A stretch of DNA of 64,000 bases, taken from positions 1-64,000 of the IMG/VR virus record IMGVR_UViG_3300027714_000008; one strand, 5' to 3'. This DNA is from a virus. The first letter of the stretch is position 1, and each line of letters opens with the position of its first letter. The translations under genes and the position numbers were made by a program. Below the pieces are notes generated by a model, which was given only the letters and a program-made list of their open reading frames with translations, made no database searches and was not told where the DNA came from. Shown here one piece after another: positions 3 through 33,728 of the stretch.

Positions 3-248
3 GTATGCAAAATACAATTGGATCAATTGTTCAATTTGGGCATTCCACAATTCAAGGACACACGAGTTAGATGGAAGCTACAGGAAAAAATGAAACATTT
101 AAAAGAAATTGAAATGTCATACATGAGTCATTTGGCTCATGCGTTTTTAATTGCAGGAGTTCTTATAGTACATGGATTACTTCCGTGGATATGGGAAACT
201 AAAGCATCTGATATGTTATGTAAAGATAGAAACCCTTCTGGTGAATAA
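3..248 (+). CDS. Small membrane protein, DUF6356-like, possibly cut by the left edge
   Basis: The frame is open to the left end of the window, so the true start may lie outside it. Inside the window a TTG at 18 and an ATG at 90 are possible starts. The protein has a charged N-terminal half, then SHLAHAF and one hydrophobic segment ending in HGLLPWIWE. That SHL...HGLLP(W/F) pattern resembles the DUF6356 family of short bacterial inner-membrane proteins of unknown role; the match is from memory. It converges on the EF-hand gene at 303-629, with a hairpin between them. Confidence 0.6.
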   Translation, partial: VCKIQLDQLFNLGIPQFKDTRVRWKLQEKMKHLKEIEMSYMSHLAHAFLIAGVLIVHGLLPWIWETKASDMLCKDRNPSGE

Positions 249-269
249 AAAAATATAGTGAAGTGATAG

Positions 270-297
270 AACTAGGAGAATTTTAAATCCCCTAGTT
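270..297. terminator. Convergent hairpin terminator
   Basis: A 7-bp stem (AACTAGG / CCTAGTT) with a 13-base loop lies between two converging genes. On the + strand it is followed by TTTACTTT, which gives a weak intrinsic terminator. It probably serves both strands. Confidence 0.5.
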
Positions 298-302
298 TTA
301 CT

Positions 303-629
303 TTATGTCTTAGGTTTAGAGTACACTGTACTTACATAGAATGCAGTAACAATACCAGCAACCGATACAAAATATGTAGGAGCCATGCTTCCTAATATCT
401 TTGCCGCTTCAGGCACACCCATTAATATAGCAACGACTACTGCAAATGGATATAATAACATTCCACCTAAAGCAAACCATGCCATATTTCGCATTGCATC
501 TTGCTTTTTATCTGCATTTTCAATGCTAATCATTCGTTCGTGTCGATTTAATTCCGCATCTGTTATGATGCCGTCTCCGTCTAAATCAGCATCATTAAGT
601 ATGCTGTCAGTTTCTAGTTTTTTAGCCAT
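303..629 (-). CDS. EF-hand membrane protein
   Basis: This 108-residue protein has a perfect EF-hand loop near its N terminus (D15, D17, D19, G20, I22, E26), which should bind calcium. Two hydrophobic segments in the second half probably span the inner membrane. The start is fixed by a strong AAAGGAG ribosome site. A TATAAATA late promoter on the same strand lies 23 bases upstream, so late expression is likely. The gene points away from the curli operon and shares its promoter region. Its role is unknown; a calcium-responsive membrane protein is inferred only from the motif. Confidence 0.75.
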   Translation of the reverse strand: MAKKLETDSILNDADLDGDGIITDAELNRHERMISIENADKKQDAMRNMAWFALGGMLLYPFAVVVAILMGVPEAAKILGSMAPTYFVSVAGIVTAFYVSTVYSKPKT

Positions 630-651
630 TAAAATCTCCTTTAAGTGAGGT

Positions 652-659
652 TATTTATA
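652..659 (-). promoter_or_regulatory. T4-type late promoter for the EF-hand gene
   Basis: TATAAATA on the - strand matches the T4 late promoter read by gp55. It is one arm of the perfect 16-base palindrome TTATTTATATAAATAA at 651-666. Confidence 0.65.
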
Positions 660-677
660 TAAATAAAGTTATAAATA
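658..677 (+). promoter_or_regulatory. Tandem T4-type late promoters of the curli operon
   Basis: TATAAATA occurs twice on the + strand, at 658-665 and 670-677, just ahead of the 708-8416 operon. Spacing from the second copy to the first ATG is about 30 bases and includes a GGAGGAG ribosome site. With the - strand copy this makes a bidirectional late promoter region. Confidence 0.65.
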
Positions 678-707
678 GTGTATCAAAGCGAAGGAGGAGT
701 ATACTAT

Positions 708-986
708 ATGGATTTTTTATCATTAGTTGGTGACGTTGGATTTCCTATCGCTGGAGCGTTGGCGGCTGGAGGTTTTGTGTTTCTTACACTTAAATTTATC
801 CTAGCTGGTGTGACCGATTCTGTAACTACGTTAAAGAATATTATTGGATCACTAGACAATCGTGTACAAACAATGAATAACGATTTGGTAAAAATTGATG
901 CACTGTTAAGTTATGCGTTAAACGTTAAACCTAACATAGATAGAATTGCCGCTAATGAAGGTAAAGACGATGCAAGGCGTGATTAA
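708..986 (+). CDS. Holin-like membrane protein A (tandem paralogue)
   Basis: The ATG at 708 is chosen over an upstream GTG because it follows a GGAGGAG ribosome site. The 92-residue product has a short N terminus, one glycine- and alanine-rich membrane span (GFPIAGALAAGGFVFL), then a predicted coiled-coil tail with LDNRVQTMNNDLVKID. This small-span-plus-coil build is common in phage holins and spanin-like proteins but is not diagnostic. It resembles the next gene in order of parts (GFPI, span, LDN/MLDND), so the pair looks like a tandem duplication. It is first in the operon, ahead of csgF. Confidence 0.7.
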   Translation: MDFLSLVGDVGFPIAGALAAGGFVFLTLKFILAGVTDSVTTLKNIIGSLDNRVQTMNNDLVKIDALLSYALNVKPNIDRIAANEGKDDARRD

Positions 987-1312
987 TGGAAGTTGATTTA
1001 GCACAAGCGATAGGTGAATACGGATTTCCTATTATTGCCGCAATGGGCATGGGATATTTTATTTATTTTATATGGAAGTGGGTAACAGAAACAATTGATC
1101 CTGTTGTAGGTGAGACTATGTTTACATTAATCAGATTAGTTGATCGTATTCGCATGTTAGATAATGATATGATTCGTTTGAATAGTAAATTATCAATGGT
1201 ATTAGAATATAGATCCAAGATGGACGGCGAACAACAAAAAGAACTTGATGATATGGTTAACAAGTATCAATCACGTAGTGAAGCATTTAACAGTACAGGA
1301 GATGGTAAATGA
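986..1312 (+). CDS. Holin-like membrane protein B (tandem paralogue)
   Basis: The start overlaps the previous stop (TAATG), implying translational coupling. The 108-residue protein has YGFPIIAAMGMGYFIYFIWKW as a single span, followed by a charged coil containing RMLDNDMIRLNSKLSMVLEY. The same order of motifs is present in the preceding protein. It has no signal peptide cleavage site, so an inner-membrane protein with a cytoplasmic or periplasmic coil is likely. It may be a holin or an inner-membrane partner of the CsgFG channel encoded next; both are inference. Confidence 0.7.
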   Translation: MEVDLAQAIGEYGFPIIAAMGMGYFIYFIWKWVTETIDPVVGETMFTLIRLVDRIRMLDNDMIRLNSKLSMVLEYRSKMDGEQQKELDDMVNKYQSRSEAFNSTGDGK

Positions 1313-1770
1313 AAATACTAATAGCTTTAAGCACAATTTGTTTACTGACTTCTACCGAAGTTAATGCAGAACTTGTCCATAAGTTTAGTAGTCCATCTTT
1401 TAATGGTAATGGATACAGTAGTCACGTATTAAGTACAGAACAACTTATACACAATCGTAAAGAGGATGTTAAAGATAAAGCCGAGGCCGAGGCCAGACGT
1501 ATAGAAAGAGAATTAGGCAACACAACATTAAACAAATTTATTACAAACCTAGAGTCAAGAATATATGCGACGTTAAGTAAACAAATGGTAGACAGTATGT
1601 TTGCGGCATGTACAGGTGACGATTGTGCAACATCAGGAACTACTGAACTTGAAGGTAGTACAATCACTTGGGTAAAAGATAGTACCACTGGTTCAATAAC
1701 ATTGACTATATCAAACGTCGATGGAACTACTGAGATTACTATTCCCGGTGCTGGAGAATTTACGTTCTAA
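1309..1770 (+). CDS. csgF: CsgF-like curli assembly factor
   Basis: This 153-residue protein has a Sec signal peptide ending near VNA-E. The mature N terminus LVHKFSSPSFNGN matches the family pattern F-x-x-P-x-F-x-G-N of CsgF, which in E. coli inserts into the CsgG channel. The middle (LNKFITNLESRIYATL) and the C-terminal GSITLTISNVDGTTEITIPG also follow CsgF. An insert rich in E, A and R (KAEAEARRIER) and a two-cysteine stretch, CTGDDC, are extra to E. coli CsgF. It overlaps its neighbour on each side (ATGA, TAATG) and directly precedes csgG. The role should be as outer-membrane cap or chaperone of the channel. Confidence 0.85.
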   Translation: MKILIALSTICLLTSTEVNAELVHKFSSPSFNGNGYSSHVLSTEQLIHNRKEDVKDKAEAEARRIERELGNTTLNKFITNLESRIYATLSKQMVDSMFAACTGDDCATSGTTELEGSTITWVKDSTTGSITLTISNVDGTTEITIPGAGEFTF

Positions 1771-2564
1771 TGAGAATTGGTCTATTAATAATGTTGCTTT
1801 TCATGGGAGCGTGTGCAGACATAGAAGCTCCTATTAATGCTGTTCCTAAAGTGCAAGGTTCACCATTAGGAAATTCATTGCAAGATATGCCAGAGCTTGA
1901 TGGTGCTAAAATGACTATAGCAGTTTATCAATTTGCTGACAAGACAGGTCAAAGAAAGCCTGCTGACAATTCAAGTTTGTCAAGTGCAGTCACACAAGGT
2001 GGCGAAGTGTGGGTTATTAAGGCGTTACAAGATGTCGGTAACTCTACATGGTTTGAAGTAGTTGAAAGGGTCGGTCTTGATAATTTGATCAAGGAAAGAC
2101 AGTTAGTGCGTAATACAAGAGATGTTTATGAAAAGAACCTAAAGACAGGACCTACACCATTAAAGCCTATGGTGTTTGCAGGTTTAATATTAGAAGGCGG
2201 TATTGTCGGATATGATAGCAATGTTTCTACAGGTGGAACTGGTGCTAGGTATTTGGGTATCGGAATACAGACACAATACAGAGTAGATACAGTCACAATA
2301 GTTATGAGATTAGTAAGTGTTAGCACAGGTAAAGTATTACTAAGTGTAGCCACAGAAAAAACAATAGCTAGTCATAGTAATGGCGCAGATGTATTTAAGT
2401 TTTTTGATATGGGAACAAAATTAGTTGAGGCCGAATCTGGTTATAGCGTGAATGAACCAGTAAATTATGCAGTTAGAGCAGCGATTGAAGCTGGCGTTAT
2501 TGAATTGATAAACGAAGGAGCTAAGAAAGAATTCTGGAAATTCAAGGAACAAAGCAATGAATAG
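1770..2564 (+). CDS. csgG: CsgG-like curli secretion pore lipoprotein
   Basis: CsgG forms the nine-fold outer-membrane channel that exports curli subunits. The phage protein (264 residues) has a lipoprotein signal with Cys15 after LFMGA. It tracks E. coli CsgG through V-Y-x-x-x-D-x-T-G-Q, the A-L-x-D block, ERxGLxNLxxER, EGxIxGYxSNV, GGxGARYxGIG, TQYxxD and GYxxNEPV. It ends soon after the E. coli INDG/INEG region and lacks part of the C-terminal tail. Residues matching the E. coli constriction Y51, N55 and F56 are A65, S69 and L70, so the opening may be wider. It is coupled to csgF and to a curlin-repeat gene. Confidence 0.93.
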   Translation: MRIGLLIMLLFMGACADIEAPINAVPKVQGSPLGNSLQDMPELDGAKMTIAVYQFADKTGQRKPADNSSLSSAVTQGGEVWVIKALQDVGNSTWFEVVERVGLDNLIKERQLVRNTRDVYEKNLKTGPTPLKPMVFAGLILEGGIVGYDSNVSTGGTGARYLGIGIQTQYRVDTVTIVMRLVSVSTGKVLLSVATEKTIASHSNGADVFKFFDMGTKLVEAESGYSVNEPVNYAVRAAIEAGVIELINEGAKKEFWKFKEQSNE

Positions 2565-3279
2565 ACGTTTTAAAAAATATTTTTATATAACCACTATGTT
2601 AGGTCTATTGACTAGCCCTAGCTTTAGTAACGACATTTATATCTCACAAGTAGGTGATACACTAGACTTGGATATTGTGCAAGACGGACAAAACAACGTC
2701 ATTGGTACCTCTGGTCAAGCTGTTGTACTTGGTAAGACGAGTAATGCTTCAGACAATATGACATTCAGTATTACACAAACAGGTAACACAAACACTATTG
2801 CCGCACAAATATTAGGTGCGACTTATACAGGTACTTGGACATTCACTGGTGATAACAGTGATGTCATATTACTTTGTAGTAGTGCTGCAATAGGTAACTG
2901 TGATAGTGTAACACTCAATATTGCGGCTGTAGGTGATAACCAAGACTACACAATCAAGATAGGCGAGAACGCATCTGGTGATGGTGCAACAGTAAACTTC
3001 ACAGTAACAGACGATGATAACATTATATCAACTGATATTGATGGAACAAGTGCAGTGGTTACTGTTACTATTAATGGTGCATCTAGTCTTGAAACAACTG
3101 ACAGCACATTAGATATTGATATTGCTGGTAACGGAGATAGTATAGGACACACTATTGTATTCAATGCTACAGGTCGAGGTCACGCAGTAGTTCTTAATCA
3201 AAGTGGTGTATACGATAACATGATTAATCTTACCACGAATGGTGATAATCAAGCTATCAATATCACTCAATCAGACTGA
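2557..3279 (+). CDS. Curlin-repeat secreted protein 1
   Basis: The gene overlaps the end of csgG by 8 bases. The 240-residue product has an N-terminal signal peptide (cleavage near SFS-N) and no cytoplasmic domain. Curlin-like strand-turn repeats of the form I-x-Q-x-G-x-x-N are visible: ISQVGDT, IVQDGQNN, ITQTGNTN, LNQSGVYDN, TTNGDNQAINITQ. Repeats in the middle are degenerate and rich in D, T and N. A single pair CSSAAIGNC could form a disulfide. By family this is a CsgA/CsgB-type amyloid subunit exported through CsgG. The repeats are less regular than in E. coli CsgA, so self-assembly is unproven. Confidence 0.75.
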   Translation: MNRRFKKYFYITTMLGLLTSPSFSNDIYISQVGDTLDLDIVQDGQNNVIGTSGQAVVLGKTSNASDNMTFSITQTGNTNTIAAQILGATYTGTWTFTGDNSDVILLCSSAAIGNCDSVTLNIAAVGDNQDYTIKIGENASGDGATVNFTVTDDDNIISTDIDGTSAVVTVTINGASSLETTDSTLDIDIAGNGDSIGHTIVFNATGRGHAVVLNQSGVYDNMINLTTNGDNQAINITQSD

Positions 3280-4397
3280 TGTTGAGACTTTTATCATTAC
3301 TCATAGTAATGGCAACGCCAGTGTATGCAAACATTGGTGAGATAACTTCTGTTAATGGCAGTGGTGCTATTGAAAGAGGCGAAGATGCTATTGAAGCAGA
3401 GAAGGGCACAGGTATTGATATGCTTGATACTGCTGTTACTGCAAATGCCAATATGCGGATTAACTTTATAGACGATACAGTAGTTGACATAACACAACAT
3501 TCAAGACTTCTTATAGACGATTTTGTGTATGATCCTGCAAGTGGTAAAGGGTCTTTGGGTCTAAAGGCGACATTAGGCACTGTTCGTTATGCCAGTGGTC
3601 AGATAGCAAAGCGTAATAGACAGAACGTAAGAATTAGAACACCTTCTGCAACTATCGGTGTTCGTGGTACTGACTTTGTTATGGTCATAGATGAAATTGG
3701 TGGATCTATGATCACACTATTACCTAGCTGTGATACTGCTGGAATGTGTTATGTCGGAGAAATAACTGTCGAAACTGATGCTGGTTTTGTTTTATTAAAC
3801 CAAGCCTTTCAAGCCACAATAGCTTCCAATAGCATGAGTCCCCCAACAAAACCTTTATTATTAGACCTTGACGAATCCATGATAAATTCTTTATTGTTGT
3901 TGCGTAAAGTCAAACCATATGAAGAAGAAGTGGCAAAAATATTAAAGAAGAAAATTAAAGATGCAGACTTCTTAGGACTAGACTTCCTTCAATTCGATGG
4001 ACTAGACTATGATGCATTGACTGAGGAACTAGAAGGTATTTGGTTGACGGCATTAGATAACACTGACAGTCTATTACAAGACATGCTTATAGACATGCTA
4101 GATCAGCTTAATTCAGCTTTGATGCAATTGTTTTTAGATGAGCTTGCCACACAGAACTCGTCTATGTTGAGAAGAGAACAAAATGTGTACGGATTTGATC
4201 CTACGACTGGTATTACTTTAATGAACCAAAGCCCTAACTGGGTGTTTTCAAGACGTGACGACAACGGAAATAACTTTGTAGAGTTAACTTTAAATCAAGG
4301 ATATGGATATACCATAGACCTAAAACAAGGAGGCTGGGAATTGTATGACTATAGGTTGGGCGACAACACTGGTAATTCTATTAACATTACCCAATAG
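3279..4397 (+). CDS. FecR-domain exported protein
   Basis: The start overlaps the previous stop (TGATG). A Sec signal peptide (cleavage near VYA-N) precedes a FecR domain at about residues 40-150. Visible parts are RINFIDDTVVDI, HSRLLIDDFVYDP, LGTVRYASG, then IRTPSATIGVRGTDF, the family hallmark. The remainder (to 372) is acidic and helical, then ends in short Q/G/N stretches (LTLNQGYGY, INITQ) that look like curlin repeats. There is no FecR-type N-terminal helix binding a sigma factor, so it is a periplasmic or secreted FecR protein. Such genes often sit beside CHASE2 cyclases in bacteria (recalled, not checked), as here. Confidence 0.85.
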   Translation: MLRLLSLLIVMATPVYANIGEITSVNGSGAIERGEDAIEAEKGTGIDMLDTAVTANANMRINFIDDTVVDITQHSRLLIDDFVYDPASGKGSLGLKATLGTVRYASGQIAKRNRQNVRIRTPSATIGVRGTDFVMVIDEIGGSMITLLPSCDTAGMCYVGEITVETDAGFVLLNQAFQATIASNSMSPPTKPLLLDLDESMINSLLLLRKVKPYEEEVAKILKKKIKDADFLGLDFLQFDGLDYDALTEELEGIWLTALDNTDSLLQDMLIDMLDQLNSALMQLFLDELATQNSSMLRREQNVYGFDPTTGITLMNQSPNWVFSRRDDNGNNFVELTLNQGYGYTIDLKQGGWELYDYRLGDNTGNSINITQ

Positions 4398-4764
4398 CCT
4401 TTGGGCTAACGAACTGATATTAAGCCAAGTCGGTAATGACTTTACGTTGAATGTCGATCAAGATGGTAATAATCACAGTATCACATTCGATGTTGATGGT
4501 AATAATAATACTGCAAATATCACACAAACAGGTGCAGACAAAACTATGATCTTAGATTTTGAAGGCAATCCACACAACTTTAATGGCACTCAAACTGGTA
4601 GTGGCAACCATTATGTCTATATAGATATTAATACACCCAATAATCGTGGCACTGCACAAATAAATTCTACTCAAACAGGAAGCACAAGTCAAAGCTACAC
4701 TATTACAGGTACTTGCTCTAGTTATAATGGGTGTGCTTTGAATGTGACTCAAACAGGTAATTGA
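4345..4764 (+). CDS. Curlin-repeat secreted protein 2
   Basis: This 139-residue protein begins 53 bases before the FecR gene ends, in another frame, and its signal peptide (cleavage near LWA-N) is written in that overlap. The mature protein is almost all curlin-like repeats: LSQVGNDF, VDQDGNNHSI, ITQTGADK, GTQTGSGNH, STQTGSTSQ, VTQTGN. Spacing is about 20-25 residues, close to CsgA/B. A cysteine pair (CSSYNGC) mirrors that of curlin protein 1. It is shorter and more regular than the first subunit, so one may act as nucleator and the other as bulk subunit. That division is inference. Confidence 0.8.
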   Translation: MTIGWATTLVILLTLPNSLWANELILSQVGNDFTLNVDQDGNNHSITFDVDGNNNTANITQTGADKTMILDFEGNPHNFNGTQTGSGNHYVYIDINTPNNRGTAQINSTQTGSTSQSYTITGTCSSYNGCALNVTQTGN

Positions 4765-4765
4765 T

Positions 4766-6802
4766 ATGAAAAAACTATTAAGTCCTTGGTGGGCATTAAT
4801 CACTCTTATGGCATTAGTTTATATATTTGCTGTACCATCTAGCTTTGTTCAGAGTGTTAAACTAAACTACTTTGACACGCTTATAGTCAACCAAGAGCCT
4901 GTGCAAAACAATATATTCGTTGCAGAGATAGACGAAGCCACATTAGACAAGTACGGACAATATCCTTTCCCACGTAAAATATATGGCGATATAATAAGAG
5001 ACTTATATGATAGAGGTGCTGGACTTGTCGTATGGAATATTATGATGCCAGAAGAAGATCGCTTTGGTGGTGACGATTATATGGCAGATGTCATGCTAGA
5101 ACTGCCAGTCGTATTGCCTAGTAGACCTAGTAATAAAACAAAGAACGAGCCTATTAATCCAGGGGCGGCTATCATTAATGCTGATTACCTTGATGTGTTA
5201 TTACCTTATGGTGGCATTATTGCAAACGTTCCTGTTATAGAATATGCATCTGTTGGTGCTGGTATTGTATCTACAGAACCAGAAATTGATGGTGTAGTAA
5301 GGCGTATGTCCACAGTAGCAGTTGTTGATGGTACGTTATATCCAAGCCTTGCTTTAGAGACGTTACGTGTTCTTGCTGGAGATACAAACTTTCAGATTAA
5401 GTTACAACCCAATGGTGTAGAGAAAATGAGAATACCAAAATTTGGTATTATTCCTACTGATAATGAGGGTCGTGTATGGATTGATTGGAGTCAAAAAAGC
5501 CAGAATGTATCCATAGCAGATCTTCCTGATAATTTTAATGGTGCTATTGTTATTGTAGATGTGACTGCATCGGGTATATCTAATCCAATACCAACGGCTT
5601 CAGGCAGTGTATTTGCTGGTGAAACACAAGCGGCGGTATTGGGAACGATGATAGCGGGCACAAACATCAATAGACCAGACTGGGCTACGTCAGTGGAGCT
5701 AATTTGCCTTCTAGTGGGGTCTTTACTGCTTATTATTCTAAGTCGTTGGATGATAATAGGTTTAATAACAACGTTTATTCTTATTGGGTCTATTGTGCCA
5801 TACTCTATGTACGCCTATGCGACAGACAAGATATTAATAGATGTAAGCGCACCTGTTATAACATTTGTTATAATAGCTTTGCAAGTTTATGGTATTAAGT
5901 TTGTTCGTGAGTTCCTAGAGAAACAAGCGATTAAAAAACAGTTTGCTGGCTACGCTTCTAAAGAAGTTGTGGAGATACTACAAAAAAACCCATCTCTTAT
6001 TAAAGATGGTACTAAGAAAGAAGTTTCTATATGCTTCTCAGATCTACGTGGATTTACACCTTTAGGAGAATCATTTGGTGATAACGTAAAAGGACTAACA
6101 TTGATTATGAATAGTTACATGGATGCTATTACAAAACCTGTGCTTGAAGCCAATGGTATGATTATTAAATATATTGGTGACGCTTCAATGCATATTCATA
6201 ATGCGCCTATGGAAGATCCTAATCACCCTAAAACTGCCGTACAAACAGGACTAAACATGTTAAAAGCAGTGGAGAAGTTTAATGAGTATATTATATCCGA
6301 AGGGAGACCGCCTGTGGGTATGGGTGCTGGTATCAATACTGGTCTCGGTTACATTGGAGAAATGGGATCGACAGCCAGACACTCCTACGACATTCTTGGA
6401 GATGCTGTTAGCACCGCCGCAAGACTTGAATCCGCATGTAAAGGTTATGGAGTTGTATTGATTGTAGGACCTGCAACATACAAAGTCACCAAGGACGATT
6501 TCTTTTATTTAAAACTAGATGATTTAGCAGTGAAGGGTAAGACTGTAGGACTAGAAATATATACAGTCTTTGATGACATTAAAACACATTACAAGAAAAG
6601 TAAAAAGATGCACAACATAATGCATGAGCATTATCGTGCACAAGAATTTGACGATGCACTCAGTATGTGCCACACTTTACAAAAGCATTTTGACGAAAGA
6701 ATGGATGGCTATTATGAAATGTGGATTGAACGATGTGAGTTTATGAAAACACAGAAACTACCAAAAGACTGGGATGGAATTTTCGTCGCCACTACTAAAT
6801 AA
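4766..6802 (+). CDS. CHASE2-domain class III adenylate cyclase
   Basis: The 678-residue membrane enzyme has an N-terminal span (about 8-27), a periplasmic CHASE2 sensor (about 45-300; VAEIDEATLDKYGQYPFPR is typical), three spans (about 308-378) and a class III cyclase domain (about 415-605). The metal aspartates are in FSDLRGFT and YIGDASM. Adenine-specifying Lys and Asp are kept (IIKYIGD and SYDILGD), so cAMP is the expected product. In GDAVSTAARLE a serine replaces the usual transition-state asparagine, while the arginine is kept. It follows the FecR and curlin genes by 1 base. A virus-encoded cyclase could alter host second-messenger state. Confidence 0.88.
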   Translation: MKKLLSPWWALITLMALVYIFAVPSSFVQSVKLNYFDTLIVNQEPVQNNIFVAEIDEATLDKYGQYPFPRKIYGDIIRDLYDRGAGLVVWNIMMPEEDRFGGDDYMADVMLELPVVLPSRPSNKTKNEPINPGAAIINADYLDVLLPYGGIIANVPVIEYASVGAGIVSTEPEIDGVVRRMSTVAVVDGTLYPSLALETLRVLAGDTNFQIKLQPNGVEKMRIPKFGIIPTDNEGRVWIDWSQKSQNVSIADLPDNFNGAIVIVDVTASGISNPIPTASGSVFAGETQAAVLGTMIAGTNINRPDWATSVELICLLVGSLLLIILSRWMIIGLITTFILIGSIVPYSMYAYATDKILIDVSAPVITFVIIALQVYGIKFVREFLEKQAIKKQFAGYASKEVVEILQKNPSLIKDGTKKEVSICFSDLRGFTPLGESFGDNVKGLTLIMNSYMDAITKPVLEANGMIIKYIGDASMHIHNAPMEDPNHPKTAVQTGLNMLKAVEKFNEYIISEGRPPVGMGAGINTGLGYIGEMGSTARHSYDILGDAVSTAARLESACKGYGVVLIVGPATYKVTKDDFFYLKLDDLAVKGKTVGLEIYTVFDDIKTHYKKSKKMHNIMHEHYRAQEFDDALSMCHTLQKHFDERMDGYYEMWIERCEFMKTQKLPKDWDGIFVATTK

Positions 6803-6810
6803 GGAAAGAA

Positions 6811-7533
6811 ATGGAAAATATTAAACGAAGCCACGAAATGGCTATAATTGCTAAAGTTGCATACGAAGATAAGGCTAAAGCAAAAGCAGTATTCGAGGCA
6901 ATGGGATATAGCAAACATGAGTTCATTGAACATAATGGAGCGCAGTGCCACGTCGTATGGAACGATGAAGAAGTAATCATTGGATTTCGTGGAACTGAGC
7001 CTGATGAATTTTCAGATATTAAAGCAGACCTTAACGCTATACCAAAAAAATGGGAAGCTGGTGGTTTGGTTCACAAAGGATTTTGCAATGAGCTAGACAA
7101 GGTTTGGACACAACTATCTTTGGTATTAAAAAAAGAACTGAAAGATCGTAAACTCTTTATCACAGGTCACTCATTGGGTGCGGCTATGGCAACCTTGGCG
7201 GCAAGTAAACTAGAGAAATCCTGTACTTGCCTATACACATACGGAAGTCCTAAAGCTGGGAGTAGAAGTTTTGTTAAGTCTATCGACGTACTACATTACC
7301 GCTTTGTTAATAATAACGACGTTGTGGCAAAAGTACCATTTTCGTTTCTTGGATACAGACACCACGGAGAACTACGTTACATAAACTACTATGGTAACAT
7401 AAGAAAGATGACTAAATGGCAAAGAGTCAAAGACCAATTCAGAGGTCGGTGGCGTGCTATAAAGAAATGGCAAATGTTCGATGGTGCTTATGACCATGGG
7501 ATGGATAATTATAAAAAATATTTAGGAAAATAA
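6811..7533 (+). CDS. Class 3 lipase-like alpha/beta hydrolase
   Basis: The protein (240 residues) follows the lipase-3 fold. It has the oxyanion motif GFRGTEP, the nucleophile elbow GHSLGAA (Ser near residue 117), the Asp in NNNDVVAKVP and a downstream His in GYRHHGELRYI. No signal peptide is visible, so it acts in the cytoplasm or is released at lysis. It sits 8 bases after the cyclase and belongs to the same operon. Substrates are probably membrane or storage lipids. A role in membrane breakdown at lysis is plausible from context only. Confidence 0.85.
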   Translation: MENIKRSHEMAIIAKVAYEDKAKAKAVFEAMGYSKHEFIEHNGAQCHVVWNDEEVIIGFRGTEPDEFSDIKADLNAIPKKWEAGGLVHKGFCNELDKVWTQLSLVLKKELKDRKLFITGHSLGAAMATLAASKLEKSCTCLYTYGSPKAGSRSFVKSIDVLHYRFVNNNDVVAKVPFSFLGYRHHGELRYINYYGNIRKMTKWQRVKDQFRGRWRAIKKWQMFDGAYDHGMDNYKKYLGK

Positions 7534-29500: not shown

Positions 29501-30175
29501 TTATGCTCCATACTTTGATGATTTTTCTAATGCTATCCAATATTCTGCATCAGAAGTTGTGTTGATAAAATGTGAGATTAGTTTAGACGAGATTTCTACC
29601 TTATAGTCTCCTGGTAATAGTTTCATGTTAGCGATACTTAAAACAACATTGAACTCATCAGTGTCATATGTTCCTTCAACATCGATAGAGAAAGTGTTTG
29701 ATGTAGGATTAGCTTCATCAAATACAGTTAGACTTATAGAACCATTGTTTGCACGAATGGATAAAGTCGAATGACCTAACGCACCAGCGGCACGTTTAAT
29801 CTTATTTAGCGTATCATTTGAGATAGCAAAATTAATTTCTGTGTCTGGCATAGTGATGTCTTTAGTAGACGTAGTGAGGTATTCACTGTCAGTAAAGAAA
29901 TACTTAACCTTAGATAGACCTGATTGGTCTTTAATGAGTACATGAGTGTCCTCAAAAGACATTGCTGGTTTATCTACAAGTCCAATAACATTCAAAAACT
30001 CGTTAAGATCGTATACACCAAACTTCTGTGGGAAGTTTATATCGAGTACGGCTTTACCAAATACATTCTTACCCTCAGAAAGAGTTCGAATAATATTCCC
30101 AGATTCAACCACTATGTTTGGATTGATAGTTGCAAAGTTCTTTAAGACCTGCAAAGCATTTTCATTTAGTTCCAT
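29501..30175 (-). CDS. 45: Sliding clamp gp45
   Basis: gp45 is the trimeric processivity clamp and also the activator of late transcription together with gp55 and gp33. The 224-residue protein matches T4 gp45 in length and in NALQVLKNFATINPNIV, GVYDLNEFLNVIG and the C-terminal EYWIALEKSS. It has its own promoter. Late promoters elsewhere in the window imply that this dual role is used. Confidence 0.92.
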   Translation of the reverse strand: MELNENALQVLKNFATINPNIVVESGNIIRTLSEGKNVFGKAVLDINFPQKFGVYDLNEFLNVIGLVDKPAMSFEDTHVLIKDQSGLSKVKYFFTDSEYLTTSTKDITMPDTEINFAISNDTLNKIKRAAGALGHSTLSIRANNGSISLTVFDEANPTSNTFSIDVEGTYDTDEFNVVLSIANMKLLPGDYKVEISSKLISHFINTTSDAEYWIALEKSSKYGA

Positions 30176-33131: not shown

Positions 33132-33728
33132 TTAGTCAAGAAAATCTGACAGGTCTGAATCAACTTTAAATTGATACTTCTTACGAACCTTCTCATCTTT
33201 GGCAAACTGTTTAATTTCGGTGTCTTTTTCTTTTACCGCATCAATACGGCTCTTTAATGTATCAATAAACCCTTGGACGACTTGCCTAGAACCTACATCC
33301 ATTTGACCTGATACCACATAGTCTTCCATACCAGATTGCGACAAATACTTCAACTTAGTATCTTGTTGCTTCTTTTCTTTAGCAATGCGCCGTAAGAATG
33401 CGTACCAAGATATTTGTGTAAAGTACCCAAAGGCATTTGGTTTACCAGTACGTGTCGCCGCTTCAATGTTATAATTCTGAATTGCCCTTAGACAATTCTC
33501 TACTGCATCCATAACCATTTCTTCACGATATGTGTATCCAATAAAATTTGACTTATGAGATAAACCCTCTGCAATCTTTAGAAAGCAGTTAGCAATATAA
33601 TCGTACACAATGGGTAAAGATGTTTCATTAGCCTGAGCCTCTTGTAATACTGTGCAATACTCTACCACTGCATTTGAAAAGTCTTTATTGTTGACGTAGT
33701 GGATGTTTTCTTTTGTGCGTCTAGCCAT
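33132..33728 (-). CDS. 55: Late sigma factor gp55
   Basis: gp55 directs host RNA polymerase to TATAAATA late promoters. The 198-residue product has a central sigma region-2-like segment (FGYFTQISWYAFLRRIAKEKKQ) and a C-terminal acidic end (DSDLSDFLD) that in T4 binds the clamp. Its presence agrees with the late promoters found before the structural and curli genes. AGGAG precedes the start. Confidence 0.92.
   Translation of the reverse strand: MARRTKENIHYVNNKDFSNAVVEYCTVLQEAQANETSLPIVYDYIANCFLKIAEGLSHKSNFIGYTYREEMVMDAVENCLRAIQNYNIEAATRTGKPNAFGYFTQISWYAFLRRIAKEKKQQDTKLKYLSQSGMEDYVVSGQMDVGSRQVVQGFIDTLKSRIDAVKEKDTEIKQFAKDEKVRKKYQFKVDSDLSDFLD

What the first reader, a model, noticed from the sequence alone, without database searches (positions are those of the whole stretch)
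651..677. Divergent late promoter region controls the curli operon
A perfect 16-base palindrome carries TATAAATA on both strands and a second + strand TATAAATA follows. This matches the T4 late consensus seen before gp18, gp20 and fibre genes here, and gp55 and gp45 are encoded. The curli operon should thus be made with virion and lysis genes, not as an early host-takeover function.
Basis: partly seen in the sequence, partly recalled or inferred. Interest (0 to 1): 0.65.

Follow-up and report, generated by a model that had tools for sequence, protein, structure and literature searches.

The report
Late promoter for phage curli operon
A marine T4-like virus carries genes for bacterial amyloid (curli) secretion, and the switch in front of them is the same kind of 'late' switch that turns on its particle-building genes; the same switch sits in front of these genes in dozens of related viruses, so the curli proteins are probably made while new virus particles are being assembled, not when the cell is first taken over.

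Summary
In detail: 651-666 is a perfect palindrome with TATAAATA on both strands, and a second + strand TATAAATA lies at 670-677. The late-promoter reading holds. TATAAATA is the most over-represented 8-mer upstream of genes in this record and among the top two in the cultured relative HTVC008M, mostly before virion genes. gp55, gp45 and gp33 are encoded. A hairpin separates the site from upstream genes, and no sigma70-type promoter is present. Relatives give the strongest support: all 25 dereplicated lead-gene loci followed by csgF/csgG have the core TAAATA within 100 nt upstream. Where csgF is itself first, 26 of 28 have it; where lead genes precede csgF, only 3 of 11 have it next to csgF. 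The motif therefore follows the operon start. Opposite-strand motifs occur where a gene diverges (17/29 against 1/21, p=7e-5), so a divergent late region is credible; T4 itself has one. Not shown: transcription timing, which + box is used, and co-expression with lysis genes. The promoter type is known; its attachment to the phage curli operon was not found in the literature searched. Side find: in HTVC008M many late boxes lie exactly 5 nt before ATG, predicting leaderless late mRNAs.

The parts
670..677 (+). TATAAATA, most likely main late promoter -10 box of the curli operon; T4 geometry predicts +1 at about 682-683, 30 nt from box to ATG 708
   Evidence: equivalent box 29-30 nt before ATG in L006-L009
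658..665 (+). second TATAAATA on + strand, alternative or auxiliary late box (predicted +1 at A671)
   Evidence: retained only in near-identical contigs L004/L005
652..659 (-). TATAAATA on - strand, predicted late promoter of the divergent gene 303-629 (predicted +1 at 646, 22 nt from box to ATG)
   Evidence: reverse motifs associate with divergent genes
651..666 (.). perfect 16-bp palindrome formed by the overlapping divergent boxes
255..306 (.). hairpin between converging genes 18-248 (+) and 303-629 (-), probable two-way terminator shielding the operon from upstream transcription
   Evidence: fold z-score -5.2 on +, -4.2 on -
303..629 (-). divergent small membrane-protein gene; homologue of HTVC008M gp021, which lies inside the tail/baseplate cluster there
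708..986 (+). operon lead gene 1 (phrog_18771), ribosome site AAGGAGGAG, ATG at 708
986..1312 (+). operon lead gene 2 (phrog_18771, same family as gene 1)
1309..1770 (+). CsgF
   Evidence: Pfam PF10614, E 1.5e-11
1770..2564 (+). CsgG
   Evidence: Pfam PF03783, E 3.9e-54
2557..3279 (+). curlin-like protein (homologue of HTVC008M gp016)
3279..4397 (+). FecR-domain protein
   Evidence: Pfam PF04773
4345..4764 (+). curlin-repeat protein
   Evidence: Pfam PF07012
4766..6802 (+). CHASE2 adenylate/guanylate cyclase
   Evidence: Pfam PF05226, PF00211
6811..9460 (+). further co-directional genes (class 3 lipase at 6811-7533, then small genes), possibly the same transcript; no further + strand TATAAATA before 29232
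33132..33728 (-). gp55 late sigma factor
   Evidence: phrog_234, E 6e-49
29501..30175 (-). gp45 sliding clamp
   Evidence: phrog_223, E 1e-67

Best explanation
651-677 is a divergent T4-type late promoter region. Host RNA polymerase carrying the phage sigma factor gp55 and co-activator gp33, activated by the gp45 clamp on replicating DNA, opens at TATAAATA. One box on the + strand (probably 670-677, perhaps helped by 658-665) starts the curli operon; the overlapping box on the - strand starts the small gene 303-629. The operon is therefore transcribed during virion assembly. Shown by sequence: motif, placement, conservation, machinery genes, no sigma70 alternative. Inferred: actual initiation, late timing, choice of box, and mutual exclusion of the overlapping boxes.
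For: TATAAATA is the most over-represented 8-mer upstream of genes in the record and among the top two in HTVC008M, and the top permuted form in both. gp55, gp45 and gp33 are present. The curli upstream region lacks a sigma70 promoter (best 7 of 12), while HTVC008M gp55, gp43, primase and exonuclease genes have 11 of 12. TAAATA lies within 100 nt upstream in 53 of 58 dereplicated lead-gene loci (shuffles 9.3 +/- 2.8, reverse strand 19), including 25 of 25 with csgF/csgG downstream. In csgF-first loci 26 of 28 have it directly before csgF, against 3 of 11 where lead genes come first. At the T4-predicted +1 column 82% are A or G. In HTVC008M the curli-containing unit follows a terminator hairpin and starts with TATAAATAG; csgF has its own. 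Reverse motifs occur in 17 of 29 divergent loci against 1 of 21 co-directional.
Against: No RNA data. The exact palindrome is not conserved beyond near-identical contigs. The predicted +1 for box 670-677 is T683 (A at 682), not ideal. Most related contigs are fragments: gp55 was found in 3 of 40 and gp33 in 3 of 16. Some large ones (236, 111 and 100 kb) showed neither, so who reads the motif there is open. Late boxes also precede a few non-structural genes (gp32, Hsp20).
Confidence: 0.88

Rival explanations
1. The operon is transcribed early or in the middle period from a sigma70-type promoter or by read-through, and the TATAAATA boxes add only a late boost or nothing.
For: In T4-like cyanophages many middle genes carry both early and late promoters (PMC2984593). 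HTVC008M gp32 has a late box although a replication gene.
Against: sigma70 matches upstream of 25 curli loci are at chance (1 with 10 or more of 12, shuffles 0.95). A stable hairpin and a divergent gene block read-through in the window. Early promoters are easy to see elsewhere in HTVC008M.
Confidence: 0.08
2. The palindrome is an operator for a dimeric regulator, not a pair of promoters.
For: Perfect 16-bp dyad in a short intergenic region.
Against: Relatives keep the + box and its spacing but not the dyad. The dyad is fully explained by two overlapping TATAAATA. 16-bp palindromes occur four times in the window.
Confidence: 0.04
3. The - strand box is a chance by-product of AT-rich sequence; only the + promoter is real.
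For: Exact overlapping dyads are rare: 4 of 53 related loci, against 0.6 expected.
Against: Reverse motifs associate with divergent genes (p=7e-5). Gene 303-629 has no good sigma70 candidate upstream (best 7 of 12). T4 has overlapping divergent late boxes between genes 26 and 51.
Confidence: 0.2

Closest known systems
T4 late promoter (TATAAATA; gp55/gp33/gp45)
   Same: Same 8-bp box, no -35 element, all three phage factors encoded, boxes before virion genes, and overlapping divergent boxes as between T4 genes 26 and 51 (PMC2988020)
   Different: Here it drives a curli secretion operon, absent from the T4 region read here; wider family consensus is NATAAATA(G/C)
Cyanophage late promoter NATAAATA (S-PM2, Syn9)
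   Same: Relaxed first base; late factor genes g55, g33, g45 conserved (PMC2984593)
   Different: Operon content; host group
Pelagimyophage / Melnitz curli operon (T8SS)
   Same: CsgF, CsgG, curlin-repeat proteins, FecR, adenylate cyclase in the same order (PMC7029224, PMC9599517, PMC9004378)
   Different: These papers did not assign the operon a late promoter in the passages read; one states that late promoter prediction was unsuccessful in pelagimyophages (PMC7029224)

Membership tests
T4-type late promoter | 8-bp TATAAATA box | tested here: met
T4-type late promoter | no sigma70 -35/-10 promoter at the site | tested here: met
   best match 7 of 12 in the 120 nt before ATG 708; no listed + strand site in the gap 630-707
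T4-type late promoter | box upstream of virion genes in the same genome | tested here: met
T4-type late promoter | gp55, gp33 and gp45 encoded | tested here: met
T4-type late promoter | start site about 6 nt after the box | tested here: inconclusive
   82% purine at that column across the family, but T683 in the window; no RNA data
T4-type late promoter | transcription depends on gp55 and concurrent replication | not testable with these tools
   needs infection or in vitro transcription
Curli (T8SS) operon | CsgG and CsgF | tested here: met
Curli (T8SS) operon | curlin-repeat subunits | tested here: met
   PF07012 in 4345-4764; 2557-3279 only by homology to the annotated HTVC008M curlin-associated protein
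Curli (T8SS) operon | CsgE, CsgD (present in enterobacterial curli; not in the phage operons described) | tested here: inconclusive
   no match among the ten genes 303-7533 scanned with Pfam; rest of the genome not searched for them

The most novel reading that the evidence does not exclude
Across marine T4-like phages the curli operon is a fixed part of the late (virion-assembly) regulon: the late box moves with whichever gene comes first. The phage amyloid system would then act at particle release or afterwards (envelope opening, aggregation of debris and neighbours, virion tethering) rather than feeding or defending the infected cell early. In the HTVC008M lineage some of these boxes sit exactly 5 nt before ATG, which would make late mRNAs, csgF's included, leaderless.
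Probability: 0.5. Interest if true: 0.62.

Novelty: new member of a known kind. Interest (0 to 1): 0.48.

Why it matters
Four published ideas for phage curli make different timing predictions. Uptake of cofactors and defence against superinfection (PMC9599517) need expression well before lysis. Sibling capture (PMC7029224, PMC9599517) and control of lysis timing (PMC9004378) fit late expression. A conserved late promoter favours the second pair and turns the question into a simple time-course experiment in HTVC008M or Melnitz, both cultured. It also shows that late promoters can be recognised in pelagimyophages, where an earlier attempt reported failure, and so lets their gene programmes be read from sequence.

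Tried and rejected
Palindrome as regulator operator: rejected because relatives keep the box and not the dyad. sigma70 early promoter: searched in the window and in 25 curli loci, at chance. A published transcriptome to check timing: the only pelagiphage time course found concerns podophages HTVC022P/HTVC027P without curli mentions (PMC12753301). The cyanophage transcriptome paper sought under PMC5029184 is not held. gp55 co-occurrence in related contigs: mostly uninformative because contigs are fragments.

Full report
WHAT IS THERE. The 78-bp gap between the divergent genes 303-629 (-) and 708-986 (+) holds three copies of TATAAATA: 652-659 (-), 658-665 (+) and 670-677 (+). The first two overlap and form the perfect palindrome TTATTTATATAAATAA, 651-666. 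Palindromes of 16 bp are not rare in this 37% GC sequence (four in the window); the boxes matter, not the dyad. The first + strand gene starts at ATG 708, not at the GTG 678 that a mechanical ORF list gives: the ATG follows AAGGAGGAG, and its homologues start at the same residue.

THE OPERON. Pfam finds CsgF (1309-1770), CsgG (1770-2564), FecR (3279-4397), a curlin-repeat protein (4345-4764) and a CHASE2 cyclase (4766-6802). 2557-3279 matches the curlin-associated protein of HTVC008M. Order and content agree with HTVC008M and Melnitz and with the operon described in PMC9599517. Upstream, the + gene 18-248 and the - gene 303-629 converge on a stable hairpin at 255-306 (z -5.2 and -4.2 on the two strands). 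The curli operon must therefore start in the 78-bp gap, apart from leakage through the hairpin.

MOTIF IN THE GENOME. With about 130 genes called by me in the 98.7-kb record (longest non-overlapping ORFs), 12 of 25 TATAAATA lie in the same-strand gap upstream of a gene; the 56 distinct arrangements of the same letters (TATAAATA included) average 1.4, and the best other reaches 5. In HTVC008M, with its deposited annotation, it is 13 of 21 against an average of 1.6. Counting all 8-mers without prior choice, TATAAATA is first in the record, and ATAAATAG and TATAAATA are first and second in HTVC008M. In HTVC008M the sites precede gp2, gp18, gp20, baseplate and fibre genes, gp32, a porin, an S-layer-type gene, Hsp20, the gene that opens the curli-containing unit (6267) and csgF itself (7549). 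HTVC008M early-type promoters, TTGACTTTT-N17-GATATAAT, stand before gp55, gp43, primase and an exonuclease gene. The two classes separate well, and curli falls in the TATAAATA class.

MACHINERY. gp55 matches phrog_234 (E 6e-49) and gp45 phrog_223 (E 1e-67). gp33 matches PF16805 over its cut-off at 91973-92185 of the record, outside the window. These are the three proteins that T4 late transcription uses (PMC2988020).

RELATIVES. The lead gene was used as a probe in IMG/VR (best 80 of more than 580). After removing upstream regions more than 70% alike, 58 remain; 53 have TAAATA within 100 nt before the ATG (shuffles 9.3 +/- 2.8, maximum 18; reverse strand 19), 40 have NATAAATA and 26 TATAAATA. 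The column six bases after the box, the T4 start position, is 82% purine against 35% one base before. All 25 loci in which csgF or csgG follows have the motif. A second scan with CsgG gave 39 dereplicated csgF starts. In 28 there is no lead gene upstream, and 26 of these have the motif within 100 nt before csgF, most often 17-21 nt away; of 11 with lead genes in front only 3 have one there. The motif goes with the start of the transcription unit. sigma70-like sites in the 25 curli loci are at the shuffle level.

DIVERGENT ARRANGEMENT. Of 29 loci where the next gene upstream diverges, 17 carry TAAATA on the reverse strand within the 100 nt; of 21 co-directional loci only 1 does (Fisher p 7e-5). 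Close overlap of the two boxes, as here, recurs in four other loci (0.6 expected). T4 itself has a palindromic overlap, TATTTATAAATA, between late genes 26 and 51. The divergent gene 303-629 is homologous to HTVC008M gp021 (45% identity), which lies among tail and baseplate genes there, so a late promoter for it makes sense.

HOW IT PROBABLY WORKS. gp55-RNA polymerase with gp33, activated by gp45 clamps on replicating DNA, opens at the boxes (mechanism from T4, PMC2988020). Box 670-677 has the family spacing to the ATG (29-30 nt in L006-L009) and is the likeliest start for the operon. Box 658-665 could add a start at A671. The - box would start gene 303-629 at 646. Overlapping boxes cannot be open together, so the two strands should compete; this is inference.

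WHAT IS NOT SHOWN. No RNA time course for any curli-bearing myophage turned up in the papers I could search. 'With lysis genes' is not supported: the Melnitz lysin candidate was assigned an early promoter by its authors. gp55 was found in only 3 of 40 related records, most of which are fragments. gp33 was found in three more, but a 236-kb record (G024) gave no gp55, gp33, gp45 or gp23; for that lineage the factor that reads the motif is unknown.

NOVELTY. The promoter type is well known, so this is a new member of a known kind. A late promoter for the phage curli operon was not found in the passages read of the three curli papers. PMC7029224 reports that late promoter prediction in pelagimyophages did not succeed, and PMC9004378 argues for a role in lysis timing from gene order. 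The comparison here supplies a working motif for the first and an independent, promoter-based argument for the second.

SIDE FIND. Spacing from NATAAATA to ATG in HTVC008M is exactly 5 nt in 9 of 24 cases and never 4 or 6. In 50 kb of T4 none of 16 is under 12 nt, and in 50 kb of Melnitz none of 10 is under 16. Over all loci 15 of 71 non-redundant TATAAATA-ATG pairs have 5 nt, none 4 or 6. With T4 geometry the A of ATG would be the first transcribed base. Leaderless late mRNAs in this lineage are a testable prediction; two literature searches gave no report on T4-like phages.

Noticed in passing
HTVC008M (L014-L016) 6267, 7549, 18922-, 31119, 49747; record G000 81903+; cyclase genes in Melnitz L002 and in L071: Late boxes exactly 5 nt before ATG (sharp spike, none at 4 or 6), predicting leaderless late mRNAs, including csgF in HTVC008M and the cyclase gene in Melnitz; absent from the T4 region examined.
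   Followed up: partly
window 33814 (+) and HTVC008M 80267 (-): A sigma70-like promoter points away from gp55 in the gap upstream of gp55 in both phages, against the gene direction: a possible antisense or small RNA. A third of the same kind is at G000 73762 (+).
   Followed up: no
HTVC008M 698, 80353, 97020, 118213, 144003: Uniform early promoters TTGACTTTT-N17-(TGT)GATATAAT before gp55, gp43, primase and exonuclease; together with TATAAATA they give a usable promoter map for a pelagimyophage.
   Followed up: partly
window 708-986 and 986-1312: The two operon lead genes belong to one family (phrog_18771), a tandem pair of about 100-residue proteins without any Pfam domain. A histidine kinase is reported in this position in podophage curli clusters (PMC9599517), but no kinase domain was found here.
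   Followed up: no
L132 / G024 (236,751 bp): A large phage record with a curli operon and a NATAAATAC box before csgF, but no detectable gp55, gp33, gp45, gp23 or sigma70 region 2; the factor that reads the motif there is unknown.
   Followed up: partly
L006, L008 upstream of the operon: The genes diverging from the curli operon there have TGTACA-N17-TATAAT promoters by eye, so an early-type leftward unit and a late-type rightward unit share one junction.
   Followed up: no
window 26881 (-) and HTVC008M 91888 (+): A late box precedes the Hsp20 gene in both phages, 97 and 72 nt before the start.
   Followed up: no
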